The notes under the pieces are model-generated. The model made no database searches. It saw nothing but the letters and a program-made list of their open reading frames with translations, and had not been told where the DNA came from. DNA of 64,000 nt, from contig JAYJMM010000081.1 in NCBI GenBank assembly GCA_037349105.1, positions 1,116,001 to 1,180,000 on the forward strand, in the 5' to 3' direction. Shown piece by piece: positions 1 through 40,947 of the stretch. The first letter of the stretch is position 1; the number at the start of each line of letters is the position of its first letter. This DNA is from Limnomonas spitsbergensis. Its lineage: Eukaryota; Chlorophyta; Chlorophyceae; Chlamydomonadales. A program made the translations under genes and the position numbers.

Positions 1-136
1 CCTGCTCGGGTGCGCCGCGTGGTGTGAAGCAACGTCCGTGTTGCCGCCTCCGCTCTCGCCCAGCCACCGCGGGTCCTCGCGCCACCGCCGCGGGACGCGG
101 TCCACGGCTAGCGTGTAGATTTCCAGGTCGCCCTCC
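1..136 (-). CDS. Metallophosphoesterase exon 25 (partial, runs off window)
   Basis: After acceptor CTGCTAG it reads [18 protein letters not shown] and continues open to base 1. This is the soluble C-terminal segment of the family; the stop codon lies outside the window. Confidence 0.92.
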
Positions 137-3100
137 CTAGCAGGCGGGCAGAAGCAGGTCACACCAGTAAGATCAACAAGTGTGAAATTTGTGATATGAT
201 TATGAGCATTTGACTTACGAGTGCCCGGCAACCCTTCCCCCCCTTCAAGACCCACTTGGTGATGTGCATTCGTGTGACTGCCTTGTGGTCAGGAATGCGC
301 AGCGAAGAAAAGGCCTCGTCGTAATGCACTCCGAACAAGCACGTAGACGCATAGAGGTAGACGCCGAACACCAAGCCCACCACCGGGGTAGCCAGCAGCC
401 AGTAGTAGGCCAGCATGCCGCCATAATATGCCATGGCCTATAGCCAGGGGGGACGGGGCTCAGGGTTCAGGGTTCAGCAGTTGAACACCGATAAATGGCA
501 TGGCCGGAACATGGGGTGTGTGGTTAAGTATTCAGGTTTCAGGATTGGGCAACGTATGGCCATATAAGCCATGGCCTGTTGCCAGGGGAAATGGGGTGAA
601 GTGTCCAGGGTTCAGCAGATTACCAAAAAGAATTGCAGAGCCAAGATATGGGGTATGGGGTTTAGGATTCAGGGTTCAGGATTGCGCAACATATGGGTCA
701 GGGTTCGGCAGCATACTGCCAATAAGTGGTATGGCCAAGACAGGGGGGCGGGGTTTAAGATTCAGGGCTCAGGCCTCAGGGTCCAGAATTTAGCCAGATA
801 CCCCCATAACATGCCTAGGCCTTCAGCTGAGGGCCGCGGTTTGCTTAACCCGCCACCCTGATCTATAAAACCTTAAAACCCTGAACCCATGCCTGGGTCT
901 ACAGCGGAGTGTGGCGGTTTGCAGGGTTTGGCAGCCAGCCTCTGTAACCTGTCATGTGCTTGGGCTGCTGACAGGGCAACTAGCAGCGAACGTAGGCTTC
1001 GCCCGTTTTTGTAGAGGTCCCTGAAGGTGCGGTGTGGCTGCTGGTGTGTGGGCTGACGCAGACCTTGATTGACAGGCCGGCCGCGCACGGCCGGCTCGCT
1101 TGCGCTGTCAGGCACAACGGTAGACCCTCCCCTTCTTTTGCCAAACCCTGTTCACCCAGACCCTGTCAAACCTCCTCACCGATATCCCGTAAATCCTCCT
1201 CATGCGGCGGGGCAAAAGATGACAATCGTATAAGAAAACAAGCAAAGCAGGTCCTCACCTGGACGCGACTCACGGCCTCCAAGCCGCGCTCCGGAGATGC
1301 AGAGCCGTCTGCAGACGTGCCGCACATGGCCGCCCGCGCCACCGCAATGGCCTCGGGCACGTCAAACAGTGCAAATGCAGCCCTGAGGGAGAGGACCAGG
1401 ATCATGAGGGGCACGTCAAATAGCGGAAAATCAACCTTAAGGCGGTGGGAGGTGGACGGCGAGGGGTGGTCTCATGCAACCAGGGTGCAGATCTAGATCT
1501 CCCACCTGATGCAGCCTGAATTCAGATCCAGATACCGCACCTGATGCAACTTAAATGCAGGCCTAACTTCCCACTTGCTTTAAACTGGCTTCAGATCTAG
1601 ATGCCAGGATATTCCACCTGATGCAGCCGGGTGCAGATCTAGATCCCAGGATCCCCCACCTGATGCAGCCGGGGTACAGGCCCAGGGTCCAAGCCTCCAA
1701 GCGGTCTCGGAAACCCATCGGGTCGGGAAAGTGTAGTGCCTCATACGTGCGGTACCAGCGGTACAGGCTGTCGGCACCGTCACGGCCGAGGTGCTCATAC
1801 CTGAGGAGCCAGCGATACAAGGCAGTACATCACAGTACATATCGGTACACCTATGCTCCGCACGTGAGATTGATTCCGGATCAGGCAGGTAGTGGGATTT
1901 GATTCCTGCTAACAAGGTTGACAGACACACGCGGCATTTTCACATCATGTCAACCTTACCCCATGGGCAGCTTGACGTGTACGGTATGAGCCTGCTATCA
2001 TTTTTGGCGGTACAAGCTTGTTATAATTATAAGAGGAGTCAGAGCCACAAGATTCCTCGCACAACCTTTTGTATACATAAATTAATCTAGGGCATGCCAG
2101 CGTGACTGGCACATGCGTCTGGCGGTGCATTAAGCCAAGCATAGGTCAGGCGCCTTATTCAGGCTCCAAGCTTTCCTCCTTCACCTAATGCACGTCTCCA
2201 CGCCTAGCTCCAGCAGCAGCGCCGCCAATATGTGTGCATAGCAGTGCATACAGCCAAGTATAGGGTACACCGTCACGGCGCCTAATTCAGGCTGCAAGCA
2301 ATCCCCCTTAACTTGATACATGTCTCCACACCCAGCTCCAGCAGCAGCATGAGCAGCAGCGCCGCCGATATGTGTGCACAGCAGTGCATGAAGCCAAGAA
2401 TAAGCGACATCGGCGCACCCCCTAGTTTAGGGTCCAGTGTCTCAACCCTCACCTGATGCACGTCTCCACACCCAGCTCCAGCAGCAGCATGAGCAGCAGC
2501 GCCGCCGACACGTGCGCGTAACAGTGCATGAAGCCAAACAGGAGCTGCATCGGCGCTCCGCCGCCGCGCGCCCAAGAGAAGGGGAGGGAGGGAGGCTGAA
2601 CCGGAGCCCACGTCGGAGGGGCCGGGACCTGACCCTCCTTGCTCGCCCCCACGCCGCCTGCAAGGGGAGGCGCAGAGCGGGTCAGACCAAGATCCAAGTT
2701 AAGATCCAGATCCAGGTTGGAATCCAGGTGTTCAATCATTAGGCGAAAGTATTGCTCTATCTCTCCGGGATAGGCGCGCCACAGTCTCCGAACGGTTTGA
2801 AAAATACATTACGGTGAGGTAACTTCTTACATGAAACTTCTTGTCCACTGAGAAACCCTAAACCTAATTCCATAGATGCATCTCCCGTCTCAAACAAATG
2901 AGACTAGTTTAGTGTCTAGGGTTTGTATACAAGTAGGGGCATCCAATCCTCATACAAGATCTGCCCCCCTCTTTCCCCTCCTTCACCTGCTTTAGCCAGT
3001 GCCAGCGTGACTGCCAGCAGCAACAGTGCCACGCCTAATGACAAGTAGCTCTGCAGCAGCAGTGCCAGGAGTGCGTCGCGGTACGCAGCCACAGCGGCGG

Positions 3101-6100
3101 CGGCAGCTTCAAGCAGCGTGTCAGCATCCATTATGGCCGCCACACTTCCACACCTGCAGGGAGGGGTGTGGGAAAAGATGATCACAATTCCACACCTGCA
3201 GCGTGTCATGGTACACAACTATGGCGGCGGATTCGGACACCGTGTCAACGCCCATAATAGCGGCCACACTTCCAAACCTGCAGGGAAGGGGTGTGGGGGT
3301 GTGGGAAGGGGTACCAAACTTTCACACCTGCCGCACGGCCACAGCGGCATGGAACACTTGTGTCAGAATCCATGGTGGCAGCCACACTTCCATACCTGCA
3401 GGGAGGGTGTGGGGTAAGTGGGGAGGGGTGGCCACACTTCCACACCTGCAGGGAGGGTGTGGGGTGGGTGGGGTGGGGTGGCCACACTCCCACACCTGCA
3501 GGGAGGGTGTGGGGTGGGTGGGGTGGGGTGGTCATATTCCCACACCTGCAGGGAGGGTGTGGGGTGGGTGGGGAAGGGTGGCCACACTTCAACACGCGCA
3601 GCCAGGGGGAGCTTTGTGCAGTGCATGCAGTGGGCCCTCTTTGTATATTCATCCCAGGGAAGAGGAGGATGGCATGGCTGCACCGTGGCCCGGCCCAGGC
3701 TGTGCAAGGTAGCTGGAATCGAGCCTAGTCTTTCCCTACCAGCCCCACGTGGCCAAGCGGTCAGCAGGGCCCAGCGGGTATGCACCGTTATAAACCCAAG
3801 GAAGAGGTGCTATGTGCAGAGTATGCAGGAAGCCTGCTCCTCCGCCCACTCTGGCAGCATTTTCAAGACGGGAGGGCGCGGGGACTGCAGATGTGGAAAC
3901 TTATCACAAAACAACTCCCATGCTGCTTCATACTAATCGTCTCTCTTCAGTCAGGGATCAGAGACCATAGTCACACTGGTGACACCTCACTGCCTCAAAC
4001 CACAAGCCCTCAACCCTAAGCCCCAATGAGGTGCACAAGTATGGAACCCTTTATTTCCACACCTTCCTCAAACCATAATCCTTCAACCCCCACTCTTCTG
4101 AACTAGGGCGGGCCAACAGTGCAGAGCTGTCTATTTCCAACCGCCTTCCCCCGACCACCGCCCCCACCTCGGCACTACAGAAATGTGTGGCTTATATGGG
4201 ACGCCAAATTTAATTGTGCACGTTCTGGCAAGCACGTGTACACGCGATGGCCTGCTTGCGTTTGACATCATCACATCATGTTTGGCATGTTATTCCCCCC
4301 CCGACCCCGACCCCCCCTCCCCACCTCAGCACCACAGACATGTGTGGCTTTTATGGGACGCCATATTTAATTCTGCATGCCATTTATTTTTTAATGTTAT
4401 TTCCCCACCGACCCCGAACCCCATCCCCACCTCGGCACCACGGACACGACTAACAGGAAGTAGATCACACCTCCGATGACATCAAACCTACAGACAAAAA
4501 CAGGGCAGGGGTGAGGGGTGGGGGGTAAGGGGTGAGGGGTGTGGGGTAAGGGGTGAGGGGTGAGGGGTGGGGGGTGGGGGACCAGTGAGGAGCAGGCCAA
4601 AGGATAGGGCGGGTGAGGAAGGGAGGGGAGGAGGGAGGGAAGGATGGAGGGAGAGAGGGAGAATGGGATGGAGCATCAGGGGGGGGGGGGGTCTATTATT
4701 CTGAACGCTCAGAGGGAACATTCGATTGCCTTGAACCCTCGACGAGCAGGGTGCCCAGACGCCGTGTGTACCAAGGTTGCATCAGCTACAATCAGCAGCC
4801 ATTCAGCTACACTTCAGCTACACTTAGCATCAATTCAGTAACACTTCTGCTGTAATCTGCAGCAATTCAGCTACTATCAGCAGCACTTCTGCTACAATTA
4901 TGCTACAATCAACAGCAATTCAACTACACTCATGCTGCAATCAGCAGCACTTCAGCTACATTTCTGCTACGATCAGCAGCAACTCAGCTACACTTCTGCT
5001 ACAATTCAGCTGCGTCGCCAAGTCAATCCAAGGCATGCTGACATGTTTTATTATAAGCCAGGGCAACCGTACCTGATGGACTCGGGTTCAGAGTCGATCT
5101 AGGCTTCAGGGTCCATGATCAGTGATGTGCCCATTACCGTCCTTACTGAGGCAGAATAACGTAGCTGAGTGTCAGTCACCGTAATTCCAAGGCAAATTCA
5201 GCTACTTTCACCAGTAAGTTACTGACACAATTTCTGAATTACAACGTCATTGCACCCATGCACAGCACTAGTCCGGATGTTTCAACATCTGATCTCTATG
5301 AGCCGCTCTCACTTACCTCTTCTTCCCTGCCACCCACGCCTCCCTGCCTCAGACACCGCCCTACTAGTACATTACGCGAGCAGGAGCAAGTGTTCTGTGA
5401 CATGACACCGCAACTGTAGTACATTACGCGAGCTAGAGCAAGCGCACTGTGACATGCCAGCATTCTCGCGTACATTTTTCTCGCGTACATTTTTCTGTGA
5501 CACGACAGAACCCTGATTGCGAGCGGGAGCCAGCCATGCGGGCGCACAAGTCGCAAATTGCAATATATTTTGCTAGAGATGCGACAAAGTGTTTCAAAGC
5601 CTGCTCTCTAGAGCCACCCTCACTTATTGTTGCGCAGATGCGTAGGGTAAAGGGCATGCCCCCTTCAAACTCAGGAGCACCTTTGCCTAATGATCTAGTG
5701 TTCAGGCTGTAAACCCGTGAAACCCAGAACCATCTAATGCTTTGCATATGGAACAAATTCAGGATCCAGCACCCTCAGTTGGTGCCGTGTAGGCCCTTGG
5801 AGGGGCAGGTGCGGGACCTAAACCCTAAACACAAAACGTAATCCTAAACCTTCAAAACGTATACGAGTTTGGCTCCTCAACCCTAACAACCCTGTCCCCC
5901 CACCTAGTGCTGAGTTGGTAGAGCAAGTGCATGCTGCTCCAGCACTAAATCATGCATTGGGGTGTCTCCCAATGGAGCTGTGAAGGCATTTCGATGTATG
6001 GGTATAGGACCTTTACCCTAACCAACCTTCGACTTCAGCAAGTGTAGGGTTGGCAAACAAAGTGCAGGTTGCGGCCCCCCCCCCTACGGTGTTTTGTAGT

Positions 6101-24100: not shown

Positions 24101-27100
24101 GGATGGGATAGGGGAGGTAATTTATCGGTGGTTGAGGGCGGCTCTGTTACCCGTCAGGCTCAGGCGGCTGCGGGAGGGGCAATATCTTCAAACCCTGGAG
24201 AGGAGTGGGCGCAACTGCGCAAGGAAGGGGGGGATACTTATCATTATTTTTACCAGGGATGGGATAGGGGAGGTTGTTTATCGGTGGTTAAGGGCGGCTA
24301 TGAGCCCCGACAGGCTCAGGCGGCTGCGGAAGGGATGGGATAGGATAGGGGGAAATTGTGAGGGTGGGGAGGGCGTATCCAGACAGAGTTCCTTAATAGT
24401 GGTGTGGTCCATGAGGAAGGTTGGGAGACCCGACAGGCTCAGGCGGCTGCAGAAGGGGAAAGATCTTCAAATCAGCGATTGGGGGGAAATCCTAAATCCT
24501 CGAGGGGCGCAAGGGAGGGGGGACCCGGTAGATACAAAAATATTTTCAAGTGAGGGAAGAAGTTTCGAATGTGGCAAGGGCGGCTCCCAGACTAGACGCC
24601 TGTTGATTCTGTTGTGGTCCGCCGCCAGGGCGGGTCAAGGACCCGATAGGCTCAGGCAGTGGCTGGTGGGAAAATAACCTCAAATCACCCTCCCTCTCCG
24701 GCCGTCTCATCTAGACCCTAAACCTCAAACCCTCTCCGGCCGTCTCATCTAGACCCTAAACCTCAAACCCTCTCCGGCCGTCTCATCTAGACCCTAAACC
24801 TCAAACCCTCTCCGGCCGTCTCATCTAGACCCTAAACCTCAAACCGTCACCGGCCGTCTCATCTAGACCCTAAACCTCAAACCGTCACCGGCCGTCTCAT
24901 CTAGACCCTATACCTCAAACCGTCACCGGCCGTCTCATCTAGACCCTAAACCTCAAACCCTCTCCGGCCGTCTCATCTAGACCCTAAACCTCAAACCGTC
25001 ACCGGCCGTCTCATCTAGACCCTAAACCTCAAACCCTCTCCGGCCGTCTCATCTAGACCCTAAACCTCAAACCCTCTCCGGCCGTCTCATCTAGACCCTA
25101 AACCTCAAACCCTCTCCGGCCGTCTCATCTAGACCCTAAACCTCAAACGGTCACCGGCCGTCTCATCTAGACCCTAAACCTCAAACCGTCACCGGCCGTC
25201 TCATCTAGACCCTAAACCTCAAACCGTCACCGGCCGTCTCATCTAGACCCTAAACCTCAAACCCTCTCCGGCCGTCTCATCTAGACCCTAAACCTCAAAC
25301 CGTCACCGGCCGTCTCATCTAGACCCTAAACCTCAAACCCTCTCCGGCCGTCTCATCTAGACCCTAAACCTCAAACCGTCACCGGCCGTCTCATCTAGAC
25401 CCTAAACCTCAAACCGTCACCGGCCGTCTCATCTAGACCCTAAACCTCAAACCGTCACCGGCCGTCTTATCTAGACCCTAAACCTCAAACCGTCACCGGC
25501 CGTCTCATCTAGACCCTTAACCTCAAACCGTCACCGGCCGTCTCATCTAGACCCTAAACCTCAAACCCTCTCCGGCCGTCTCATCTAGACCCTAAACCTC
25601 AAACCGTCACCGGCCGTCTCATCTAGACCCTAAACCTCAAACCGTCACCGGCCGTCTCATCTAGACCCTAAACCTCAAACCGTCACCGGCCGTCTCATCT
25701 AGACCCTAAACCTCAAACCGTCACCGGCCGTCTCATCTAGACCCTAAACCTCAAACCGTCACCGGCCGTCTTATCTAGACCCTAAACCTCAAACCGTCAC
25801 CGGCCGTCTCATCTAGACCCTAAACCTCAAACCGTCACCAGCCGTCTCATCTAGACCCTAAACCTCAAACCGTCACCGGCCGTCTCATCTAGACCCTAAA
25901 CCTCAAACCCTCTCCGGCCGTCTCATCTAGACCCTAAACCTCAAACCCTCTCCGGCCGTCTCATCTAGACCCTAAACCTCAAACCGTCACCGGCCGTCTC
26001 ATCTAGACCCTAAACCTCAAACCCTCTCCGGCCGTCTCATCTAGACCCTAAACCTCAAACCGTCACCGGCCGTCTCATCTAGACCCTAAACCTCAAACCG
26101 TCACCAGCCGTCTCATCTAGACCCTAAACCTCAAACCGTCACCGGCCGTCTCATCTAGACCCTAAACCTCAAACCGTCACCGGCCGTCTCATCTAGACCC
26201 TAAACCTCAAACCGTCACCAGCCGTCTCACCTAGACCCTAAACCTCAAACCGTCACCGGCCGTCTCATCTAGACCCTTAACCTCAAACCGTACCCAGCCG
26301 TCTCATCTAGACCCTAAACCTCAAACCGTCACCGGCCGTCTCATCTAGACCCTAAACCTCAAACCGTCACCAGCCGTCTCATCTAGACCCTAAACCTCAA
26401 ACCGTCACCGGCCGTCTCATCTAGACCCTAAACCTCAAACCGTCACCGGCCGTCTCATCTAGACCCTAAACCTCAAACCGTCACCAGCCGTCTCATCTAG
26501 ACCCTAAACCTCAAACCGTCACCGGCCGTCTCATCTAGACCCTAAACCTCAAACCGTCACCAGCCGTCTCATCTAGACCCTAAACCTCAAACCGTCACCA
26601 GCCGTCTCATCTAGACCCTAAACCTCAAACCCTCTCCGGCCGTCTCATCTAGACCCTAAACCTCAAACCCTCTCCGGCCGTCTCATCTAGACCCTAAACC
26701 TCAAACCCTCTCCGGCCGTCTCATCTAGACCCTAAACCTCAAACCGTCACCGGCCGTCTCATCTAGACCCTAAACCTCAAACCGTCACCGGCCGTCTCAT
26801 CTAGACCCTAAACCTCAAACCGTCACCAGCCGTCTCATCTAGACCCTAAACCTCAAACCGTCACCGGCCGTCTCATCTAGACCCTAAACCTCAAACCGTC
26901 ACCAGCCGTCTCATCTAGACCCTTAACCTCAAACCGTCACCGGCCGTCTCATCTAGACCCTAAACCTCAAACCGTCACCGGCCGTCTCATCTAGACCCTA
27001 AACCTCAAACCGTCACCAGCCGTCTCACCTAGACCCTAAACCTCAAACCGTCACCGGCCGTCTCATCTAGACCCTTAACCTCAAACCGTCACCAGCCGTC

Positions 27101-30100
27101 TCATCTAGACCCTAAACCTCAAACCGTCACCGGCCGTCTCATCTAGACCCTAAACCTCAAACCGTCACCAGCCGTCTCATCTAGACCCTAAACCTCAAAC
27201 CGTCACCGGCCGTCTCATCTAGACCCTAAACCTCAAACCGTCACCGGCCGTCTCATCTAGACCCTAAACCTCAAACCGTCACCGGCCGTCTCATCTAGAC
27301 CCTAAACCTCAAACCGTCACCAGCCGTCTCATCTAGACCCTTAACCTCAAACCGTCACCGGCCGTCTCATCTAGACCCTAAACCTCAAACCGTCACCAGC
27401 CGTCTCACCTAGACCCTAAACCTCAAACCGTCACCAGCCGTCTCATCTAGACCCTAAACCTCAAACCGTCACCGGCCGTCTCATCTAGACCCTAAACCTC
27501 AAACCGTCACCAGCCGTCTCATCTAGACCCTAAACCTCAAACCGTCACCGGCCGTCTCATCTAGACCCTAAACCTCAAACCGTCACCAGCCGTCTCATCT
27601 AGACCCTAAACCTCAAACCGTCACCAGCCGTCTCATCTAGACCCTAAACCTCAAACCGTCACCGGCCGTCTCATCTAGACCCTAAACCTCAAACCGTCAC
27701 CAGCCGTCTCATCTAGACCCTAAACCTCAAACCGTCACCAGCCGTCTCATCTAGACCCTAAACCTCAAACCCTCTCCGGCCGTCTCATCTAGACCCTAAA
27801 CCTCAAACCCTCTCCGGCCGTCTCACCTAGACGCTGAGGCTAGTGTCCAGTCCGAAGCCTTGACACCAGCCTCTGTCACCTGCATCAGGCGAGGTTGGAT
27901 GCCACCTTGGGTGCCTCCCTCCCTCCCCCCTCCTCCCTCCCCCCTCCTCCCTCCCTCCCTCTCCCCTCCTCCCTCCCTCCCTCCCCCCTCCTCCCTCCCC
28001 CTCCCTCCCTCCCCCCCCCCCTCCTAACCTTCCCACCTAGACGCTGAGGCCAGTGCCGAGTCCGCCGCCTTCACTCCTGCCTCAGCCACCTGCATCAGGC
28101 GAGGCTGGAGGCCACCTTGAGAGCCGCCACCACCAGCCCGGCCGGCGCTGCTGCTGCTGCTGGGGCTCCCGCCTTTAAAAATTGTACGCTTGACCTGAAA
28201 TCGGGGTTCATAGGGTTTTAGAGTGTTACAGCAAAATCTGGCATGTACATCTGGCATGTACATATCGCGTGTACATCTGGCATGCACATCTGGCATGTAC
28301 ATCTGGCATGCACATCTGGCATATACATCTACTCATCTAGCAGGTAAATCTGACATGTACATCCAGCATGTATATCTGGCATGTACAACTGGCGTGTACA
28401 TCTGGCATGTATATCTGGTGCGTACATCTGGCGCATACATCTGGCATGCACATCTGGTATGTACATCTGGCTTGTACATCTGACATGTACATCGAGCATG
28501 TACATTTGGCATGTGCATCTGGAATGCACATCTGGCATGCAGATCTGGCATGCACATCTGGCAGAGACAGTACATTTGCTTTGTCTTCCCTCTTAATTAT
28601 CGTTGTTTGGGGTTTTGAGGGATCCATGGCTTTATCATTATATGATGATTATCCATAGTCGATGTCAGTTTTCAGTCCAGCATTAAGAGTTGTTGTCGAT
28701 AATTTGCCCTGAGGGCAGAATCCAAAGAAATCGTTTGTTAATGCCCGAGGGATCGCAAATCAAATTATCGATAGAAGGTGTGCCTGACTGGAGTCACTCG
28801 TACGGTTGCCGCACACCCCACCGACCTCCAGCGCATTCTTTCTTCTCTGAAATAACGGCCGGCCCACGTCCCCACCCGCAACGTCCCCTATGTCGCCAAC
28901 GGCGGAACCGCCGCCGCAGCCGCGTGCAGGCGCCGCAGCCGCGCCACCGGCAGCCGCCGCTGCAGCAGCAGCCCAGCTGCCGCTGCCACCGCTCCCCCTC
29001 AACGGCCGCTGGTTTCGGAACCGTACGAGCGCCGACGATGGCGCCCCCGCTCTGCCCCACCTCTGCATCACCTCGCCCGCGCTACCCCGCGCGCCCGCCG
29101 CCGCGTGGCCGCGCTGCCGCGCCTCCGCGGCATCGTGGTCGCTCACGCATGCCGCCGCCGCCCCGTCCGCGCAACAGTTGATCAAATAAATCATCACGAC
29201 GGTCATCCAAACGGTGAGGACCGGGGACAGAAATGCCCCAGCGGCTGACAGATACTCCACGGCGGGTGGAGCAGGGGCACCCGGTAGAGCTGAGGCTGCT
29301 GCCGCTGGCTGGTGTGGCGGCAGTGGGGAGGGCTTGACTACCTCCCCGTACAACATCCACGAGGAGAACCGCGGGTATCGGTCCGTCGTGATGGGCGGCA
29401 GGATAAAGGAACAGACCGCTCGGCGCAGGAAGTACTCGTCAGCCGCAAGCGGCGCCGCCGCCGCCGCTGCCGCCGCGGCGGCGGGCGCCGACACGTTTGC
29501 ACCTACGTGCGCCCACGCCGCCGCAGGCGCGGGGGGCGCGGCGGCGCTTGCGCCCGCGCCGTTTCCGCAGAAGCTGTGGTAGGTGCTGCAGACAAGCGCG
29601 ATCGTCATTGAGTTGAGCAGCAGCAGCATGATTAGGTCGCGCAGGCCAAGCCCCGCGGTCTGTCGAGCCAGTCGCTGCTTCGCTTGGGGCCCGCGGGGAC
29701 TCGGCTGCGATTCCGGCCTCCGCCAGGCCAAAGGCACCCATGACTTGGGCAGGTGAGTTACTACCAAGTGAGTGCAGTGTACCGTTGCCAGAACCTGCAC
29801 AACCGGAACAGAACAAAATATGTGTGGAACATAAGTGTGGGAAATCCGCGGCATCGGACACACTTTTTCACACACTTGAGATTTGCTACCTACTCGGGCT
29901 TGTGGTGATGGGACAGGCCGCCTTAACGTGCCAGCAAGGATGGGCAATGACTCAGCGCTAGTGTGGACTAGAAAGCAATGGTGGTATGGACAATAATACC
30001 ACACAAGTGTGAACAATATCCCACTGCTGGTGTGCACCATGGCCCATCACTACTGTCGACTGATCATTCACACAAGGCTAGTGTGCACAGGAACTCCACA

Positions 30101-32358
30101 TTCGTGTGAACAACGAGCAAATACTGGGGCGGACAAGAATGTCTCATAAAGCAACAACGTAGGTACCCGTACAATCTCAACAAGCTAAAATAAAAACAAG
30201 CCAAAGATAAGTCTTCAGGGCTCCCCCAAAAAGAATTGTAGCCTACCCATATGTTCAAGCTGAGCTATGGCAGGGTGGGCAACCGTTAAAACCCCACACA
30301 AGTGTGGCCAAGTACCCACCGCAAGTGTGGACAAGAACGCAACAATGAGGAGTGACAGGTCCGCCCGTGCGTTCAAACCGAGAGAGTCCAGGGAGGGCAG
30401 GTGGTAGAACACGGCGCTGCAAAGCCATGCGATGTACAACGAGTGGAAGTTGATGTACGCCCTGAGCAGTAGAAAGTGGGGAGCAGGTGGGCAGTGGGGG
30501 AGGCGATGTACAACGAGCAGAGTGACCACAAATGTACACCCTGAGCAGTGGGGAGTGGGGAGAAGGTGGGCAGTGGGGGGACGATGTACAACGAGTGGAA
30601 GTTGATGTACGCCCTGAGCAGTGGGGACTGGGGAGAAGGTGGGGGGGCGATGTACGACGAGCAGAGTGTACAGCGAATATACGCCGTGAGCAGTGGAAAG
30701 TGGGGAGATGGTGGACAGTCGGGTGGCGATGTACAACGAGTGGAGTGTACAACGAATATACGCCGTGAGCAGTGGAAAGTGGGGAGATGGTGGACAGTCG
30801 GGTGGCGATGTACAACGAGTGGAGTGTACAACGAATATACGCCGTGAGCAGTGGAAAGTGGGGAGATGGTGGACAGTCGGGTGGCGATGTACAACGAGTG
30901 GAGTGTACAACGAATATACGCCGTGAGCAGTGGAACGTGGGGAGATGGTGGACAGTCGGGTGGCGATGTACAACGAGTGGAGTGTACAACGAATATACGC
31001 CGTGAGCAGTGGAACGTGGGGAGATGGTGGACAGTCGGGTGGCGATGTACAACGAGTGGAGTGTACAACGAATATACGCCGTGAGCAGTGGAACGTGGGG
31101 AGATGGTGGACAGTCGGGTGGCGATGTACAACGAGTGGAGTGTACAACGAATGTACAACCTGCCCCCTGGTCATACCTGGAGGCTCCTCCTGTTCAAACC
31201 TGGAGGCTCCCACTGTCCCTACCTGGAGGCCCCCTGTTCAGACCTGGAGGCTCCCCCTGTCCATACCTGGAGGCTCCCCCTGTCCATACCTGGAGGCTCC
31301 CCCTGTCCATACCTGGAGGCTCCCCCTGTCCCTACCTGGAGCCCCCCTGTTCATACCTGGAGGCTCCCCCTGTCCCTACCTGAAGGCCCCCTGTTCATAC
31401 CTGGCGCCCCCTTGTCCCTACCTGGAGGCTCCCACTGTTCATACCTGGAGGCTCCCTATCTTCATACCTGGAGGCCGATCCCAGACGGGACCGGATATGG
31501 GACCGGATATGAGGGCGTGCCCACGAGTGAGCAAAGAAACACAAAGCACCTAAATATGGGAGGGGGGAGGAGGTGTGAACAGTGGGAAAAGCGTGTGGAC
31601 AGAGGGGAGAAGAAGTATAGGACACCAGTACTGGGGGAGGGGGTGAGGGAGGTGTGGACAGTGGGGAGAGGGGTGTGTGCCTGGCTATGAGAGCTCCCTA
31701 GTGACAGATATGCACACACGCGTTTGATGTATCCATGCACGTACGGATAATTTACATATCCATATGTCTTTCAATATCCATACCGCTGTCCATAGGCTCA
31801 ACTGGCGAAGGGGGCTCGGGGGTAGAAACCCCCAAAGTCCAGGCCCCGAAGTCCAGCGGAAATGCGTTAATTGCATGCAAGTGATGGTATTAAATGTCAT
31901 AACGAGGCTAGGGAGGAAGGGGGGCATGGGTAGCTTGGCTTCACGTGGGTCAGGAAGATGTCTCGGCGGTGGGGATTGGGGCGAGGAGTTGTCAGCCACT
32001 GAGCCTGCCCAGGGGAGAACCCTAGGAAGGGAGGCAGGAAATGGGAATAGAGGTGCGGGCAGGCATGGGAGAGCCCCTAGGGGAGGAGGTAGGGAGGGCC
32101 TGGCATGCTCTAGAGAGATCCTTGCAGAGGGGGGGAGTCAAAACCATGGAAAAGCCCTATGCTAGGGAGGTGGGCAGTGGCCGTGCCCATGCAACCCACC
32201 GAAGAGCACGTAGTACTTGCGATTGATTTGCAGCTTGCTGAAAAGGCTCTGTGCGACACGCAAGACTTGTGAGATCCACATGCGGACAGCGAGGCTGAGG
32301 GCACGTCGATTCTCAGAATATTCTGTTTTGAATGCAGCCGCGGTGTCGGCAGCGTCAT
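1..32358 (-). CDS. Plant-type calcineurin-like metallophosphoesterase, multi-pass membrane protein (25 exons resolved, 3' end off window)
   Basis: Spliced gene read from 32358 down to the window edge. The exon chain follows the domain order I know from the plant calcineurin-like phosphoesterase membrane proteins: N-terminal membrane segments, a phosphoesterase core, then C-terminal membrane segments and a soluble tail. The core shows the family metal motifs: ADTGDGG and GGDLAYP (exon 10), PGNHDW (exon 12), THQPLW (exon 14) and [10 protein letters not shown] (exon 15), so it is probably a competent di-metal phosphoesterase; the substrate is unknown. Exons (high to low): 32358-32200, 31549-31468, 30461-30320, 29794-29147, 28194-28037, 23649-23468, 22121-21998, 20966-20876, 19915-19823, 16602-16283, 15987-15861, 15572-15441, 14178-14054, 12755-12636, 10469-9579, 8664-8485, 7586-7398, 6635-6306, 4487-4431, 3153-2987, 2657-2453, 1800-1660, 1382-1259, 437-256, 136-1. 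All have AG/GT borders and compatible phases. The start codon is not found. Exons 5, 6 and 16 rest on phase and openness only. Confidence 0.87.
256..437 (-). CDS. Metallophosphoesterase exon 24: last membrane segment
   Basis: Encodes [20 protein letters not shown], then [20 protein letters not shown]; the second block is a hallmark of the plant proteins. Donor ACCAA|GTGGGT leaves in phase 2. Confidence 0.95.
1259..1382 (-). CDS. Metallophosphoesterase exon 23
   Basis: Encodes [20 protein letters not shown] and an alga-specific tail ending SRVQ before GTGAGG. The FDVPE motif is conserved in the plant family. One acceptor-edge copy lies upstream at about 1400-1425. Confidence 0.87.
1495..1640 (-). 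repeat. Three donor-side copies of exon 22 edge
   Basis: On the minus strand GGCTGCATCAG|GTGG or a close variant recurs at 1615-1627, 1538-1550 and 1501-1513, each just downstream of the real splice site at 1660 and each with an intact GT. Confidence 0.85.
1660..1800 (-). CDS. Metallophosphoesterase exon 22
   Basis: Encodes [20 protein letters not shown], then [16 protein letters not shown], matching the plant FPDP-x-G...WT-x-GLYP-x-CI block. Donor ATCAG|GTGGGG is copied at 1615-1627, 1538-1550 and 1501-1513. Confidence 0.95.
2170..2410 (-). repeat. Two decaying copies of exon 21 in its downstream intron
   Basis: Blocks at 2320-2405 and 2185-2250 still translate as [18 protein letters not shown] and [18 protein letters not shown]. 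The copy next to the real exon is the better preserved one. Confidence 0.88.
2453..2657 (-). CDS. Metallophosphoesterase exon 21: membrane segment
   Basis: A variable Pro/Gly start, then [20 protein letters not shown] and ELGVETCI, the best conserved membrane helix of the C-terminal half. Two further copies of the same coding block, including the donor region, lie downstream in the intron. Confidence 0.95.
2987..3153 (-). CDS. Metallophosphoesterase exon 20: membrane segment
   Basis: Encodes [20 protein letters not shown], then [20 protein letters not shown], a membrane helix. Acceptor CTGCAG|GTG; many acceptor-edge copies lie upstream (3160-3600). Confidence 0.87.
3160..3600 (-). repeat. 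Acceptor-side tandem array of exon 20 edge
   Basis: Units of about 60-80 bp, each carrying CCCTCCCTGCAG|GTGTGGAAG on the minus strand, the same sequence as the real acceptor at 3155-3154. One longer copy (3200-3260) also retains a decayed version of the ATAATGGATGCTGACACG coding stretch. Confidence 0.85.
3655..3800 (+). repeat. LINE-derived fragment in intron 19
   Basis: Resembles 48420-48565 (GGATGGCATGGCTGCACC through CGGGTATGCACCGTT). That second copy runs into a LINE zinc-finger remnant, so this is most likely a piece of the same LINE family. Confidence 0.6.
4150..4350 (-). repeat. Donor-side copies of exon 19 edge
   Basis: CATGTCTGTGGTGCTGAGGT (4327-4345) and a weaker copy at 4168-4190, each followed by similar TTAAAT/GGGACGCC sequence, repeat the exon 19 end at 4431. 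Confidence 0.8.
4431..4487 (-). CDS. Metallophosphoesterase exon 19: membrane segment
   Basis: A 57-bp exon encoding [19 protein letters not shown], a membrane helix nearly identical in position and sequence to the plant family. Donor CCGAG|GTGGGG, with two decayed copies of the exon end at 4327-4345 and 4168-4190. Confidence 0.93.
4500..5020. repeat. G-rich and CAGCTACA-type simple repeats, intron 18
   Basis: GGGGTGAGGGGT-type repeats at 4500-4690, then degenerate ~20-bp units containing CAGCTACACTTCTGCTACAA at 4785-5020. The rest of intron 18 (5020-6305) holds a 62-bp doublet at about 5365-5458 and otherwise nothing I recognise. Confidence 0.75.
6306..6635 (-). CDS. Metallophosphoesterase exon 18
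   Basis: 110 codons. An Ala/Pro-rich insertion is followed by [17 protein letters not shown] and [13 protein letters not shown], corresponding to the conserved AAYPS segment of the plant family. Acceptor TCCTAG|GGA, donor ACGAG|GTGAGC. Confidence 0.85.
6640..7395. repeat. Intron 17: degenerate GTGATGG repeats plus a palindrome
   Basis: 6645-6880 is an irregular tandem of short GAGTGATGCAGTGTTGGGGT-like units. It is followed by unique sequence and the 78-bp palindrome at 7026-7103, listed separately. No gene seen. Confidence 0.7.
7026..7103. repeat. 78-bp perfect palindrome
   Basis: The sequence from GCGCTTTAGAGAATC to GATTCTCTAAAGCGC is its own reverse complement with no spacer; the centre is GGAG|CTCC between 7064 and 7065. 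It could form a 39-bp-stem hairpin in the pre-mRNA. Origin unknown: fold-back element, inverted microduplication or assembly artefact. Confidence 0.95.
7398..7586 (-). CDS. Metallophosphoesterase exon 17
   Basis: Encodes [20 protein letters not shown], the block that closes the phosphoesterase core in the plant proteins ([12 protein letters not shown]). Acceptor ATCGGCAG, donor TGCAG|GTAGGT. About seven acceptor-edge copies sit upstream. Confidence 0.95.
7590..8130 (-). repeat. Acceptor-side tandem array of exon 17 edge
   Basis: About seven units of 70-80 bp, each holding a version of CTTATCGGCAG|CGAGGCC (minus strand), the same sequence as the real acceptor at 7588-7587. The units are otherwise polypyrimidine on the minus strand, so each is a plausible 3' splice site. 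Confidence 0.87.
8360..8475 (-). repeat. Donor-side copy of exon 16 edge
   Basis: The minus strand at about 8385-8450 carries TGTGCGCGGCCTGCCAGGCA, a decayed copy of the exon 16 end near 8485-8520. This supports exon 16 as a real exon of this gene. Confidence 0.65.
8485..8664 (-). CDS. Metallophosphoesterase exon 16 (tentative)
   Basis: Open 60-codon block between CCGCAG and CG|GTGAGG with the phases needed by exons 15 and 17 (in 2, out 2). Ser/Pro/Leu-rich, no recalled homologue. A decayed copy of its donor edge lies downstream at about 8385-8450. Confidence 0.52.
8700..9310. repeat. Intron 15 low-complexity: G-rich block and GCAGTAC-type repeats
   Basis: 8705-8950 is GGGGAGGGGATTGAGCAGAG-type tandem sequence. 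8980-9300 is a set of 18-25 bp repeats built around GCAGTAC and GTATGCAGGGCAGTACAAT. No coding signal. Confidence 0.85.
9535..9612 (-). repeat. Iterated donor of exon 15
   Basis: GGCAGCTATGGTG recurs four times in about 70 bp (minus strand), giving successive GT donors in different phases. It decides where exon 15 ends. Confidence 0.8.
9579..10469 (-). CDS. Metallophosphoesterase exon 15: GDLH motif and long low-complexity insertion
   Basis: Begins [20 protein letters not shown] and HFYMRHSY (GD-x-H metal motif), then about 260 residues rich in Ala, Gly, Ser and Pro with no plant equivalent. The 3' end is ambiguous: four near-identical copies of GCAGCTATG|GTG follow one another, and only the second gives the phase needed by exon 16, so 9579 is chosen. 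Confidence 0.85.
10955..12632 (-). repeat. Donor-side array: 11 copies of exon 14 end
   Basis: Units of roughly 100-160 bp (one gap near 11780-12000) each begin with a version of [15 protein letters not shown] coding sequence running into a GTA/GTAT donor, then intron sequence with CGTAGAGAGAAAGATAAA (plus strand). Copies start near 10968, 11112, 11270, 11395, 11541, 11645, 12000, 12140, 12231, 12380 and 12529. Most keep the GT. The intact exon is at 12636-12755. Confidence 0.92.
12636..12755 (-). CDS. Metallophosphoesterase exon 14: TH motif
   Basis: Encodes [19 protein letters not shown], then [19 protein letters not shown]. The TH is a conserved metal ligand. The last part of this exon plus its GTACC donor is repeated 11 more times in the following intron. 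Confidence 0.96.
12765..13200. repeat. 42-bp minisatellite, about 10 copies
   Basis: Unit AGAGGGACATACTAATGAGG followed by AGCACGGGCAGATGTATGAATC. Copies differ at one or two positions. The unit length is a multiple of three, so a long open frame results by chance; it lies in intron 13 and is not a gene. Confidence 0.95.
13370..13590. repeat. Telomere-like minisatellite, intron 13
   Basis: Four degenerate units of about 50 bp with GAGGGTTCAGGGTTGAGACG and CAGGAAGCAGT. The GGGTT(C/T)AGGG core resembles plant/algal telomere sequence but is interrupted. Confidence 0.85.
13815..14052 (-). repeat. Donor-side copy of exon 13 and pyrimidine minisatellite
   Basis: 13818-13850 (minus GGCATCCACCACTGCAG|GTC) copies the exon 13 end at 14054. 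Between them (13915-14052) lies a CCTGCCCCCTGCCTCCTGCC tandem repeat that starts directly at the real donor. Confidence 0.8.
14054..14178 (-). CDS. Metallophosphoesterase exon 13
   Basis: Encodes [20 protein letters not shown], then [20 protein letters not shown], both almost identical to the plant proteins. Two decayed copies of its first 25-30 bp lie upstream (14255-14375) and one copy of its end lies downstream (13818-13850). Confidence 0.96.
14255..14550. repeat. Two acceptor-side copies of exon 13 and a GGGTCA array
   Basis: Minus-strand copies of the first 25-30 bp of exon 13, with acceptor, lie at 14262-14290 and 14345-14372. 14408-14545 is about 22 copies of the hexamer GGGTCA, a telomere-like variant. 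Confidence 0.87.
15165..15405 (-). repeat. Three donor-side copies of exon 12 edge
   Basis: Blocks near 15172-15225, 15240-15285 and 15352-15405 repeat the exon 12 end (coding EFILNRVG) with the GTGGGTGATGG donor, each progressively changed. Confidence 0.85.
15441..15572 (-). CDS. Metallophosphoesterase exon 12: GNHDW motif
   Basis: Encodes [18 protein letters not shown], then [18 protein letters not shown] is the family's bridging-metal and proton-donor motif. Phase 0 on both sides; donor AGG|GTGGGT, copied three times downstream. Confidence 0.95.
15600..15850 (-). repeat. Acceptor-side copies of exon 12 edge
   Basis: 15690-15790 repeats the sequence spanning the intron end, the CAG acceptor and the first ~50 bp of exon 12 (minus GCAGTCAGTCCCCACACTCC). 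15600-15660 and 15770-15840 share GGACAGGATATAAAACGTTT-type flank. Confidence 0.8.
15861..15987 (-). CDS. Metallophosphoesterase exon 11
   Basis: Encodes [18 protein letters not shown], then [17 protein letters not shown], matching the segment between the GGDLAYP and GNHDW motifs in the plant family. Phase 2 in, phase 0 out. Confidence 0.92.
16055..16282 (-). repeat. Edge copies in intron 10
   Basis: 16120-16282 holds about eight ~20-bp copies of TGAACCCTAGCAG|GTGTGC (donor of exon 10). 16060-16100 holds a decayed copy of the exon 11 start with its acceptor. Confidence 0.85.
16283..16602 (-). CDS. Metallophosphoesterase exon 10: first metal-binding motifs
   Basis: Begins [19 protein letters not shown] and ends [19 protein letters not shown]. 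These are the D-x-x-D-G and GGD-x-x-YP metal motifs of the phosphoesterase core. An inserted Gly/Ala/Pro-rich loop of about 60 residues separates them. Donor CTAGCAG|GTGTGC is followed by about eight copies of itself. Confidence 0.95.
16605..17470. repeat. Intron 9, distal part: exon 10 acceptor copies and telomere-like motifs
   Basis: 16637-16672 repeats the exon 10 start (minus CAGGCTTGGATCGACTTCAT), with weaker copies near 17130 and 17200. GGGTTTAGGGTTAAGGG-type stretches occur at 16608-16640 and 17330-17430. No gene seen. Confidence 0.75.
17470..18009. other. Intron 9, no feature recognised
   Basis: Scattered GTGTGGGGTGTG and GGGTTA motifs only. Confidence 0.5.
18010..19425. repeat. 44-bp satellite, about 32 copies with a 3-unit higher order
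   Basis: Unit CTTGAGAACATAGGGTGTGA, then GGACTAGGGTGGAGACCCCTACAC. Units differ mainly at GAACAT versus GAATAT. Through the middle and right part the variants cycle C-T-T, giving a 132-bp higher-order repeat. It sits in intron 9. Confidence 0.95.
19430..19820 (-). repeat. Donor-side copies of exon 9 edge
   Basis: ATGAGTGGCCTGAG|GTG-type copies occur near 19520, 19612 and 19718 (minus), each with GT and followed by GGGACTGC, repeating the real exon end at 19823. Confidence 0.85.
19823..19915 (-). CDS. Metallophosphoesterase exon 9
   Basis: 31 codons, phase 0 at both ends, ending [16 protein letters not shown] before GTGGGG. Corresponds to the linker directly before the ADTGDGG motif. Edge copies lie on both sides (19930-20460 and 19490-19740). 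Confidence 0.82.
19925..20670 (-). repeat. Acceptor-side copies of exon 9 and an ATCAGGGCGGGAC repeat
   Basis: Four units (about 19990-20050, 20110-20150, 20180-20250, 20330-20380) carry pyrimidine tract, CAG and the start of exon 9 (minus CTCAGGCGGCCTCCGCCCCC type). Next, 20560-20670 is a 13-14 bp AGGGCGGGACAGATC repeat. Confidence 0.82.
20876..20966 (-). CDS. Metallophosphoesterase exon 8
   Basis: Encodes [18 protein letters not shown], then [12 protein letters not shown]. Acceptor CTCGCAG, donor CAG|GTGTGA. Near-identical to the conserved VFVGRFDMR block preceding the catalytic domain in plants. Confidence 0.92.
20990..21120. repeat. Acceptor-side repeats of exon 8
   Basis: GAGGGGCAGTACAAG (plus) recurs four times between 20982 and 21100, repeating the pyrimidine-tract region just upstream of the exon 8 acceptor. 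Confidence 0.7.
21360..21990. repeat. CCTCCT polypyrimidine tract of about 600 bp, intron 7
   Basis: Almost pure C/T on the plus strand (A/G on the coding strand). It ends a few bases below the exon 7 donor. A long Ser/Pro/Leu open frame through it is compositional. Confidence 0.95.
21998..22121 (-). CDS. Metallophosphoesterase exon 7
   Basis: Acidic Gly/Glu-rich start, ending [10 protein letters not shown] plus two bases (AG) before GTGCGG. Joined to exon 8 it gives [19 protein letters not shown], a well conserved segment of the plant family. The acceptor may be 3 bp lower. Confidence 0.8.
22140..22345. repeat. TTATTGCAGTTT repeat, intron 6
   Basis: About a dozen 14-16 bp units of TTTGGTTATTGCAGTTTCG type next to the exon 7 acceptor, whose own intron end reads CTGCAATGACTTC (minus). 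Probably another acceptor-side iteration. Confidence 0.75.
22385..23420 (-). repeat. ~60-bp minisatellite and donor-side copies of exon 6
   Basis: Two copies at about 23240-23400 keep AAGCACGCGGGACAG|GTGAGG. Below them 22400-23160 holds about 13 units with CAGGCTGCCTGGGGCTGTAC (minus), the same words as the exon 6 end, joined to GGGTTAAGGGTTTGGGGTCT. The last unit has a usable GTACAG|GTATTG donor. Confidence 0.88.
23468..23649 (-). CDS. Metallophosphoesterase exon 6 (tentative)
   Basis: Reads [20 protein letters not shown], then a Pro-rich tail ending GAAQARGT before donor GACAG|GTGAGG. Phase 2 in and phase 1 out, exactly what exons 5 and 7 need. Flanked by acceptor-side copies upstream (23690-24690) and donor-side copies downstream (22385-23400). 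Confidence 0.55.
23690..24695 (-). repeat. Acceptor-side array of exon 6 (151-bp units)
   Basis: Three near-identical ~151-bp units (23800-24250) and three shorter, decayed ones each contain a GCAG|CCGCCTGAGCCTG acceptor plus exon start, as at 23651-23630. Confidence 0.88.
24697..27834. repeat. 38-bp satellite, about 82 copies, derived from a splice donor
   Basis: Unit CCGTCTCATCTAGACCCTAA, then ACCTCAAACCGTCACCGG. Variants alternate CCCTCTCCGG, CGTCACCGG and CGTCACCAGC. Read on the minus strand it contains GGGTCTAGATGAGACGG, close to the exon 5 donor copy GCGTCTAG|GTGAGACGG that directly borders the array at 27815-27835. A few units (for example near 26228) regain the GT. Confidence 0.93.
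27835..28030 (-). repeat. Donor-side copy of exon 5 and pyrimidine tract
   Basis: 27838-27895 repeats the last ~60 bp of exon 5 (coding [11 protein letters not shown] words) with GTGAGA donor. 27905-28022 is CTCCCTCCCCCC sequence. Confidence 0.85.
28037..28194 (-). CDS. Metallophosphoesterase exon 5 (tentative)
   Basis: Open frame from acceptor TTTCAG|GTC to donor GCGTCTAG|GTGGGA. Ser/Gly-rich, then [19 protein letters not shown]. No plant counterpart recalled; accepted because its phases join exons 4 and 6 and because its donor edge is copied downstream (27838-27890). Confidence 0.5.
28230..28572. repeat. 13-bp repeat CATCTGGCATGTA
   Basis: About 26 degenerate copies in intron 4. Open frames on both strands with repeating Cys/Met/His are a by-product of the repeat. 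Confidence 0.93.
29147..29794 (-). CDS. Metallophosphoesterase exon 4, two membrane segments and an Ala/Pro-rich loop
   Basis: Open for 216 codons from acceptor GTGCAG|GTT. It holds two hydrophobic helices, [20 protein letters not shown] and [20 protein letters not shown], separated by an Ala/Pro-rich stretch and by [16 protein letters not shown], which corresponds to a conserved block before the second helix in plants. The donor TGC|GTGAGC at 29147 is the best phase-0 choice; a second candidate (GAG|GTGATG) lies about 70 bp further on. Confidence 0.75.
29950..30318 (-). repeat. Donor-side copies of exon 3 edge
   Basis: CTTGTCCACACTTGCGGTGG-type words recur about six times below the exon 3 donor (30320), mixed with CACACAAGTGTGG. 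Confidence 0.72.
30320..30461 (-). CDS. Metallophosphoesterase exon 3, membrane segment
   Basis: Encodes [20 protein letters not shown], then [19 protein letters not shown], a close match in order and spacing to the N-terminal membrane region of the plant family. Acceptor CTCAG|GGCG, donor GCG|GTGGGT, leaves in phase 0. Confidence 0.87.
30470..31165 (-). repeat. 79-bp acceptor-side array of exon 3, about 8 copies
   Basis: Units contain CTCACGGCGTATATTCGTTG then TACACTCCACTCGTTGTACATCG (minus), i.e. the exon 3 acceptor and first ~40 coding bases ([10 protein letters not shown]). Units nearest the exon resemble it best; distant units are homogenised with one another. Confidence 0.92.
31165..31467 (-). 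repeat. ~22-bp donor-side array of exon 2, about 14 copies
   Basis: Plus-strand unit CATACCTGGAGGCTCCCCCTGT. On the minus strand every unit contains CCTCCAG|GTA, the real donor at 31468. Confidence 0.92.
31468..31549 (-). CDS. Metallophosphoesterase exon 2
   Basis: Encodes [16 protein letters not shown] and onwards, entering in phase 1 and leaving in phase 2. Acceptor is TATTTAG at 31551-31550, donor CCTCCAG|GTATGA. Many copies of the donor edge follow in the intron (31165-31467). Confidence 0.65.
31550..32199. other. Intron 1, little structure
   Basis: Contains GGGTGTG-type runs near 31560-31680. The sequence 31700-32199 is unique and I see no exon in it. Confidence 0.45.
32200..32358 (-). 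CDS. Metallophosphoesterase exon 1 of those resolved (N-terminal region)
   Basis: Reads [13 protein letters not shown] through INRKYYVLF and ends in phase 1 at donor G|GTGGGT. It joins exon 2 to give [16 protein letters not shown], which fits the N-terminal part of the plant homologues. A TGA lies just upstream in frame, so an acceptor AG at 32360-32359 is assumed. The exon carrying the initiator ATG must lie upstream and I could not identify it. Confidence 0.6.
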
Positions 32359-32359
32359 C

Positions 32360-40193: not shown

Positions 40194-40913
40194 CTGCAGG
40201 GTTGAGTGTCCAGGGTTCAGGGTCGGGCACGCAAAACTTAGGCCAGGCTCATCTGCTGGGTAAGGGTTAAGGTTTCAGGGCTGCAAATTTAGGAGCGGGT
40301 CCGCACACCTTGTTGTCAGGCTGACGTGTAGGGTTCAGGGTTCAGTGTTTATAGGCGGGTCCGCACACCTTGTATGCAAGGCTCATCTGCTGTGTTTAAG
40401 TATAGGGTTAAGGGTTCAGGGTTTCGGGGCGGGTCCGCACACCTTGTATGCCAGGCTCATCTGCTGTGTTTAAGTATAGGGTTAAGGGTTCAGGGTTTAG
40501 GGGCGGGTCCGCACACCTTGTTGTCAGGCTGACGTGTAGGGTTCAGGGTTCAGTGTTTAGAGGCGGGTCCGCACACCTTGTATGCAAGGCTCATCTGCTG
40601 TGTTTAAGTATAGGGTTAAGGGTTCAGGGTTTAGGGGCGGGTCCGCACACCTTGTTGTCAGGCTGACGTGTAGGGTTCAGGGTTCAGTGTTTAGAGGCGG
40701 GTCCGCACACCTTGTATGCAAGGCTCATCTGCTGTGTTTAAGTATAGGGTTCAAGGGCTCAGGGTGAAGGGGAGAGCGCGCACAACTTATCGGCAGAGCA
40801 TCGTCGCAGTGCAGATGGAGACCCCACCTCCCTCTCTCTCCCCCAGTCTTTCCCCTCCCTTCTCTTCCCTCCCCTCCTACCTTCCCTTCCAACTTGTCTT
40901 TCCTCTCCCTCCC

Positions 40914-40947
<34 letters not shown>

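What the first reader, a model, noticed from the sequence alone, without database searches (positions are those of the whole stretch)
1..32358. Exon-intron boundaries are systematically iterated into neighbouring introns
At most introns of the metallophosphoesterase gene, the intron contains one to eleven decaying tandem copies of an exon edge including its splice site. Acceptor-edge copies lie upstream (exons 3, 6, 9, 10, 11, 12, 13, 17, 20, 23) and donor-edge copies downstream (exons 2, 3, 5, 6, 9, 10, 12, 13, 14, 15, 16, 19, 21, 22). Copies keep pieces of recognisable coding sequence. Tandem duplication across a splice junction with only one copy kept under selection would explain the geometry, but the frequency is striking and I know of no description of it as a genome-wide mode of intron growth.
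Basis: partly seen in the sequence, partly recalled or inferred. Interest (0 to 1): 0.9.

Follow-up and report, generated by a model that had tools for sequence, protein, structure and literature searches.

The report
Tandem duplications spilling over exon edges
In this green alga short stretches of DNA are often duplicated side by side, and when that happens across the end of an exon the spare copy of the exon edge is left decaying in the intron; in the genes examined exon edges are hit about as often as other spots in introns, so this looks like a by-product of a general mutational process rather than a special mechanism.

Summary
In the metallophosphoesterase gene 21 of 52 exon edges (22 of 50 after correcting the model) have a junction-spanning copy in the adjacent intron, far above shuffles. 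It recurs in a second window gene (4/8), 14 chaperonin genes (35/267) and 5 kinesin genes (18/46). Mid-exon segments (5/211) and non-adjacent introns (0/132) rarely match. But edges are not special. Over 20 genes a junction window is copied in 79/265 cases, an intron window 67 bases in, in 80/265 (paired p = 1.0). Six random loci reach 89/360. The fall-off into exons roughly follows a one-parameter model of random tandem duplication. Copies show no significant excess retention of GT or AG and no reading-frame preference. Best explanation: pervasive short tandem duplication, with selection keeping only the outer, functional edge. The genome is very probably Limnomonas spitsbergensis. Most interesting residue: junctions show no depletion, as if duplicating a splice junction were nearly cost-free.

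The parts
1..32480 (-). Membrane calcineurin-like metallophosphoesterase gene, about 27 exons; 3' end runs off the window at base 1
   Evidence: Homologues; spliced model
31171..31388 (-). 5 junction-spanning copies of donor edge of exon 3 (edge at 31468), in a 23-bp array
   Evidence: TRF
30532..31100 (-). 8 copies of acceptor edge of exon 4 (edge at 30461), in a 79-bp array
29936..30100 (-). 3 copies of donor edge of exon 4 (edge at 30320)
27808..27851 (-). 1 copy of donor edge of exon 7 (edge at 28037; exon uncertain)
23843..24679 (-). 6 copies of acceptor edge of exon 8 (edge at 23649)
23327..23371 (-). 1 copy of donor edge of exon 8 (edge at 23468)
20021..20379 (-). 4 copies of acceptor edge of exon 11 (edge at 19915)
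19502..19733 (-). 3 copies of donor edge of exon 11 (edge at 19823)
16643..16675 (-). 1 copy of acceptor edge of exon 12 (edge at 16602)
16150..16255 (-). 3 copies of donor edge of exon 12 (edge at 16283), in a 19-bp array
16064..16105 (-). 1 copy of acceptor edge of exon 13 (edge at 15987)
15668..15782 (-). Copy of acceptor edge of exon 15 (edge at 15595), first mistaken for exon 14; coordinates worked out by hand from the printed alignment
15169..15392 (-). 3 copies of donor edge of exon 15 (edge at 15441)
14247..14381 (-). 2 copies of acceptor edge of exon 16 (edge at 14178)
13816..13845 (-). 1 copy of donor edge of exon 16 (edge at 14054)
11629..12259 (-). 3 junction-spanning copies of donor edge of exon 17 (edge at 12636), of 11 matches
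8396..8433 (-). 1 copy of donor edge of exon 19 (edge at 8485)
4149..4340 (-). 2 copies of donor edge of exon 22 (edge at 4431)
3183..3608 (-). 7 copies of acceptor edge of exon 23 (edge at 3153)
2165..2337 (-). 2 copies of donor edge of exon 24 (edge at 2453)
1496..1636 (-). 3 copies of donor edge of exon 25 (edge at 1660)
559..833 (-). 3 copies of acceptor edge of exon 27 (edge at 437)
39694..45593 (-). Galactose/glyoxal oxidase-like gene, 5 exons modelled; true ends not determined
44683..44828 (-). 2 copies of donor edge of its exon 1 (edge at 44923)
44473..44502 (-). 1 copy of acceptor edge of its exon 2 (edge at 44113)
41959..42234 (-). 3 copies of donor edge of its exon 3 (edge at 42313)
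40231..40738 (-). 8 copies of acceptor edge of its exon 5 (edge at 40193)

Best explanation
Short tandem duplications arise widely in this genome. For the copies nearest to edges the spacing has median 111 bp (range 31-401, 78 edges). When a duplicated unit happens to straddle an exon-intron junction, the result is exon-edge + intron-edge repeated. If the exon-proximal (outer) splice site goes on being used, the message is unchanged and the inner copy becomes intron. It then decays by substitution and is sometimes re-duplicated into an array. A unit lying wholly in an exon changes the protein and is mostly removed. Shown: the copies, their polarity, their locality, the flat profile, the decay and the similar level at random loci. 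Inferred: that the outer site is the one used, and that the duplications come from break repair or slippage.
For: Copies run through the junction and include intron bases, so a spliced RNA was not the template. Copies lie in the adjacent intron: 0/132 in non-adjacent introns, 55/252 right side against 2/265 wrong side. Flat profile over 265 edges of 20 genes: junction 0.30, first 45 intron bases 0.29, +67 0.30, +120 0.29; paired test 36 junction-only against 37 intron-only. Fall-off into exons 0.24, 0.16, 0.07 at -45, -67, -90 against 0.21-0.23, 0.16-0.17, 0.11 predicted by a model with the rate as only fitted parameter. Background: six random loci 89/360, introns of 14 other genes 107/485. 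Decay: in the best copies GT 71/76 against exon flank 295/331 (p = 0.40), AG 67/79 against neighbours (p = 0.87). Offsets modulo 3 are 27/24/27; 20 of 78 extensions are open in frame.
Against: The -35 window lies above the model (0.31 against 0.24-0.25) and the -90 window below it (0.07 against 0.11). In the five kinesin genes junctions (19/41) look higher than intron windows (12/41 at +67), though n is small. Rates differ strongly between genes: four chaperonin genes have 0 of 65 edges positive, and the six random loci range from 1 to 40 of 60, so the random background rests mainly on three loci. No RNA evidence was examined. Breakpoint microhomology could not be measured: only 6 young two-copy arrays were usable.
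Confidence: 0.86

Rival explanations
1. An edge-specific process (splicing-linked breaks, R-loops at splice sites or reverse splicing) preferentially copies exon-intron boundaries into introns.
For: Many edges are affected in some genes: 22/50 in the metallophosphoesterase, 18/46 in five kinesins; kinesin junctions 19/41 against 12/41 at +67; -35 window above the random model.
Against: Flat profile and paired test p = 1.0 over 265 edges; random genomic loci show a copy level similar to introns; in this gene alone, a 50-bp scan gave intron windows 0.64 and junction windows 0.49.
Confidence: 0.07
2. The copies are kept as decoy or alternative splice sites, giving regulated splicing or a reservoir of spare edges.
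For: GT is intact in 103 of 115 donor copies and AG in 69 of 107 acceptor copies (40 of the 115 donor copies come from one edge, L007 D8), so many could still act as sites.
Against: GT and AG are not retained significantly above neighbours; no frame preference and 20/78 extensions open; of 8 edges in matched introns of the L011/L012 paralogues that bear a copy in at least one, 3 bear one in both.
Confidence: 0.04
3. Assembly or polishing artefact: long-read errors or misassembled repeats have created false tandem copies.
For: The assembly that this matches was built from PacBio CLR reads, and tandem arrays are hard to assemble (recalled).
Against: Copies differ from their source, 69-100% identity over the aligned part, some with indels; the pattern recurs on many contigs; the published assembly used reads with L50 33 kb and Illumina polishing.
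Confidence: 0.02
4. Introner-like or transposable elements carrying splice sites have inserted repeatedly.
For: The copies carry splice sites and lie in introns.
Against: Copies contain the host gene's own coding sequence, and donor edges do not match non-adjacent introns of the same gene (0/132).
Confidence: 0.01

Closest known systems
Small tandem duplications from break repair (Schimmel et al. 2021, PMC8355091; it cites Vaughn and Bennetzen 2014 on rice)
   Same: Short head-to-tail copies; the overhangs induced there were as small as 43 bp (abstract start and passages seen).
   Different: Here they are mostly old and often amplified into arrays; the enzyme and the breakpoints are unknown. 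No claim that CST/Pol alpha acts here.
Intron gain by tandem genomic duplication (reviewed in Yenerall and Zhou 2012, PMC3443670; Lehmann et al. 2010, PMC2891723)
   Same: Tandem duplication in a gene plus choice of splice sites so that the message stays intact (passages seen).
   Different: There an exonic AGGT is duplicated and a new intron arises. Here an existing junction with its intron sequence is duplicated, and an existing intron grows.
Internal gene duplication (Gao and Lynch 2009; title seen in reference lists, paper not held; content recalled)
   Same: Duplications inside genes that take in exon and intron pieces.
   Different: As I recall it concerns larger segments and intron creation; I could not check whether it treats decaying edge copies.
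Intronic minisatellites
   Same: Many arrays here are minisatellites by Tandem Repeats Finder.
   Different: Here the unit contains an exon edge with its splice site, in 78 of 373 edges tested.

Membership tests
Short tandem duplication (generic) | Head-to-tail copy near its source | tested here: met
   Copies in the adjacent intron at median 111 bp; 0/132 in non-adjacent introns
Short tandem duplication (generic) | Copy continuous across the junction (DNA-level) | tested here: met
   A junction-spanning copy was required for each edge counted
Short tandem duplication (generic) | Similar frequency inside and outside introns | tested here: met
   Six unannotated random loci 89/360, introns of 14 other genes 107/485, but 46/100 in this gene
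Short tandem duplication (generic) | Breakpoint signature (microhomology or none) | tested here: inconclusive
   Only 6 young two-copy arrays
Exon-edge-specific iteration | Junctions copied more often than intron interiors | tested here: not met
   79/265 against 80/265, p = 1.0
Introner-like elements | Near-identical units dispersed among introns of many genes | tested here: inconclusive
   0/132 non-adjacent introns within the same genes; introns of other genes were not compared
Whole-exon (alternative exon) duplication | Copy carries both splice sites of the exon | tested here: not met
   Wrong-side edge matches 2/265, so at most a few cases
Intron gain by tandem genomic duplication | Intron absent from relatives at that position | not tested
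   No genomic DNA of relatives was compared
Functional alternative splice sites | Use in transcripts | not testable with these tools
   No RNA data here; public IsoSeq and RNA-seq are described in the genome paper

The most novel reading that the evidence does not exclude
In this alga duplicating a whole splice junction is close to cost-free: junction-spanning duplications survive at the same rate as duplications deeper in the intron, for donors and for acceptors, so splicing must almost always take the exon-proximal copy even when an intact rival lies about 100 bases away. Introns can then grow by tandem duplication right up to and through the exon edge, and the arrays are a natural experiment on splice-site choice (strong exon definition).
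Probability: 0.35. Interest if true: 0.6.

Novelty: new member of a known kind. Interest (0 to 1): 0.42.

Why it matters
It shows that a striking gene-structure pattern can come from background tandem duplication plus selection, and it gives the control that tells the two apart (junction against intron interior, not against mid-exon). It also warns that gene finders may take decayed edge copies for exons, as mine did once. If the lack of depletion at junctions holds genome-wide, it measures how well the spliceosome tolerates duplicated splice sites, which could be checked directly with existing full-length transcripts.

Tried and rejected
Rejected as a sole control: mid-exon segments (5/211), because a duplication lying wholly in an exon cannot land in an intron. 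A Pfam scan of stop-masked translations, one frame each of window 20001-32400 and 8000-20000 (minus), found nothing. A first self-BLAST missed short-unit arrays; a 50-bp window scan gave, in this gene, intron 0.64, junction 0.49, exon interior 0.16, and rest of window 0.25, and led to the matched tests. Splice-site retention looked raised for GT in this gene alone (0.97 against 0.89) but was not significant over all 78 positive edges. Paralogue pairs are too diverged (4-fold differences 0.31-0.46) to date single duplications. Breakpoint microhomology failed for lack of young arrays. Other eukaryote genomes could not be compared with the collections I used, so I cannot say how unusual the rate is. 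Ten paper searches, read as listings of at most 10 to 30 rows, showed no paper that from title or abstract start describes decaying exon-edge copies as a genome-wide feature; Gao and Lynch 2009 is not held. Passages of PMC3488318 and PMC7605655 added nothing decisive.

Full report
What the window is. The window is G000:C81:1116001-1180000, in a genome of 260,226,709 bases and 124 contigs. The published assembly of the Arctic snow alga Limnomonas spitsbergensis has 260,248,090 bp in 124 contigs and a largest contig of 10.736 Mb (abstract, passages and most of the Results section seen). G000 has a contig of 10,736,355 bp. For one chaperonin the best protein in the database is 92% identical, so the species' own proteins did not appear there.

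The gene. Homologues and a spliced alignment written for this purpose give a gene of 28 modelled exons on the minus strand, window 32480 to 1, coding for a membrane calcineurin-like phosphoesterase. Exons 6 and 7 are uncertain. Exon 14 turned out to be a decayed copy of the acceptor edge of exon 15, so the true number is nearer 27.

Check of the observation. For each exon edge I compared 25 exon plus 20 intron bases with the rest of the adjacent intron, against 100 dinucleotide shuffles of that intron. 13 of 26 donors and 8 of 26 acceptors have a significant copy that spans the junction; with exon 14 removed, 22 of 50 edges. 15 of 27 modelled introns are affected. Examples are the 79-bp array carrying the exon 4 acceptor edge at 30532-31100 and the 23-bp array carrying the exon 3 donor edge at 31171-31388.

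Other genes. The galactose oxidase-like gene in the same window: 4 of 8 edges. Fourteen chaperonin genes fetched from other contigs, out of about 17 match clusters listed: 15/133 donors and 20/134 acceptors (exons under 25 bases dropped). Five kinesin genes, out of more than forty match clusters: 8/23 donors and 10/23 acceptors (exons under 30 bases dropped). Together 78 of 373 edges in 21 genes. From then on, 50 shuffles were used. The chaperonin and kinesin profiles were built from the genome's own matches, so small exons there, above all in the Hsp60-type loci L013-L017, are less certain.

Controls. Mid-exon 45-mers against adjacent introns: 5/211. Donor edges against an intron two further on: 0/132. 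Intron-internal 45-mers against their own intron: 94/402. Edges against the wrong neighbouring intron: 2/265, right side 55/252. These controls cover the 16 genes then in hand, without the kinesins. So the copies are local, in tandem, and with the stated polarity.

Are edges special? Not in these data. I slid a 45-base window from 90 bases inside the exon to 160 bases inside the intron, for introns of at least 250 bases, which 20 of the 21 genes have. The copied fraction is 0.07 at -90, 0.16 at -67, 0.24 at -45, 0.31 at -35, 0.30 at -25 (junction), 0.31 at -10, 0.29 at 0, 0.25 at +22, 0.27 at +45, 0.30 at +67, 0.29 at +90, 0.29 at +120, 0.28 at +160. Junction and +67 windows of the same edge disagree equally often in both directions (36 and 37, p = 1.0); against +120 it is 32 and 27 (p = 0.60). 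Six random genomic loci give 89/360, two loci flanking the window 31/120, introns of 14 other genes 107/485, introns of the metallophosphoesterase 46/100. This gene is thus richer than average, but the process is not confined to introns or to edges. The random loci are very uneven (1 to 40 of 60), and I do not know what they code for. A simple model with random unit positions, unit lengths taken from the observed spacings corrected for size bias, and only the rate fitted, predicts 0.11, 0.16-0.17 and 0.21-0.23 at -90, -67 and -45. It runs low at -35 and high at -90.

Are the copies functional? Nothing seen says so. In the best copies GT is kept at 71/76 positions against 295/331 for exon positions -12 to -4 (p = 0.40), and AG at 67/79 against neighbours (p = 0.87). 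Distances from edge to nearest copy are spread evenly modulo 3 (27/24/27), and 20 of 78 would keep an open frame if the copy were used. Counting all copies, 103/115 keep GT and 69/107 keep AG; copies within an array are not independent, and 40 of the 115 come from one edge. Between the diverged paralogues L011 and L012, 8 edges of matched introns carry a copy in at least one and 3 in both.

How it most likely works. A tandem duplication that straddles a junction leaves two edges. If splicing keeps to the outer one, the coding sequence is unchanged and the inner one is free to decay. Duplications wholly inside exons are mostly lost. This accounts for the geometry, the polarity, the flat profile and the fall-off. 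The molecular source is open. Small tandem duplications are known from repair of breaks with complementary 3' overhangs (Schimmel et al. 2021, passages seen). Too few young arrays were available to test breakpoints.

What is left that is interesting. Junctions are not depleted relative to intron interiors: 79/265 against 501/1786 for all windows at 0 or beyond (summed). In the data without kinesins this holds roughly for donors (31/112 against 37/112 at +67) and acceptors (30/112 against 32/112) separately. If a duplicated splice site often misled splicing, one would expect fewer. One caution: the exon side of an edge evolves more slowly, so its copies stay recognisable for longer, which could hide some depletion.

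Relation to what is known. Tandem duplication as a source of introns is well described (passages only). Mean intron length in the published annotation is 788 bp; medians in six core-Reinhardtinia relatives are 198-343 bp (passages), but means and medians are not directly comparable. The genome paper classes 22.78% of the genome as unclassified repeats; whether that includes these arrays I did not test. I found no description of decaying exon-edge copies as a genome-wide feature in ten searches of the held library, read as listings; most subscription papers are not held, and Gao and Lynch 2009 could not be read. I rate it a new member of a known kind.

Noticed in passing
window and L004-L028; contig ends L029, L032, L034, L036, L038: Telomere repeat at 5 of 10 contig ends looked at is TTTAGGG. 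Short telomere-like pieces are scattered through the genome: TTTAGGGTT 14 times in the window against 0.4 in shuffles, TTCAGGGTT 16 against 0.6; they may be repair scars, and some lie inside array units.
   Followed up: partly
window 24698-27832, 18010-19423, 12767-13195: Long, nearly uniform minisatellites: 38 bp x 82, 44 bp x 32, 42 bp x 10 copies, all within introns of the metallophosphoesterase gene.
   Followed up: no
L011/L012, L013/L014, L015/L016: Chaperonin genes occur as diverged paralogue pairs (4-fold differences 0.31-0.46); introns mostly unalignable in two pairs, two short introns still largely alignable in L013/L014. Suggests an old duplication of genes or genome.
   Followed up: partly
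window 38089-40248 (minus): C-terminal part of the galactose oxidase-like gene has proline-rich linkers and repeated Cys-rich QCGGIGG modules that resemble fungal cellulose-binding domains (resemblance recalled, not searched; ORF).
   Followed up: no
window 51607-56607 (plus) and 34616-35236 (plus): A 1666-aa open frame with internal repeats and a reverse-transcriptase-like fragment, perhaps retroelement remains (judged by eye, not searched).
   Followed up: no
window about 7027-7102: An inverted repeat with arms of about 38 bp around GGAGCTCC, in an intron of the metallophosphoesterase gene (read by eye).
   Followed up: no
L004, L005, L008, L010 against L020: Tandem duplication load differs greatly between genes: none of 65 edges in four chaperonin genes, 5 of 6 edges in one kinesin gene.
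   Followed up: no
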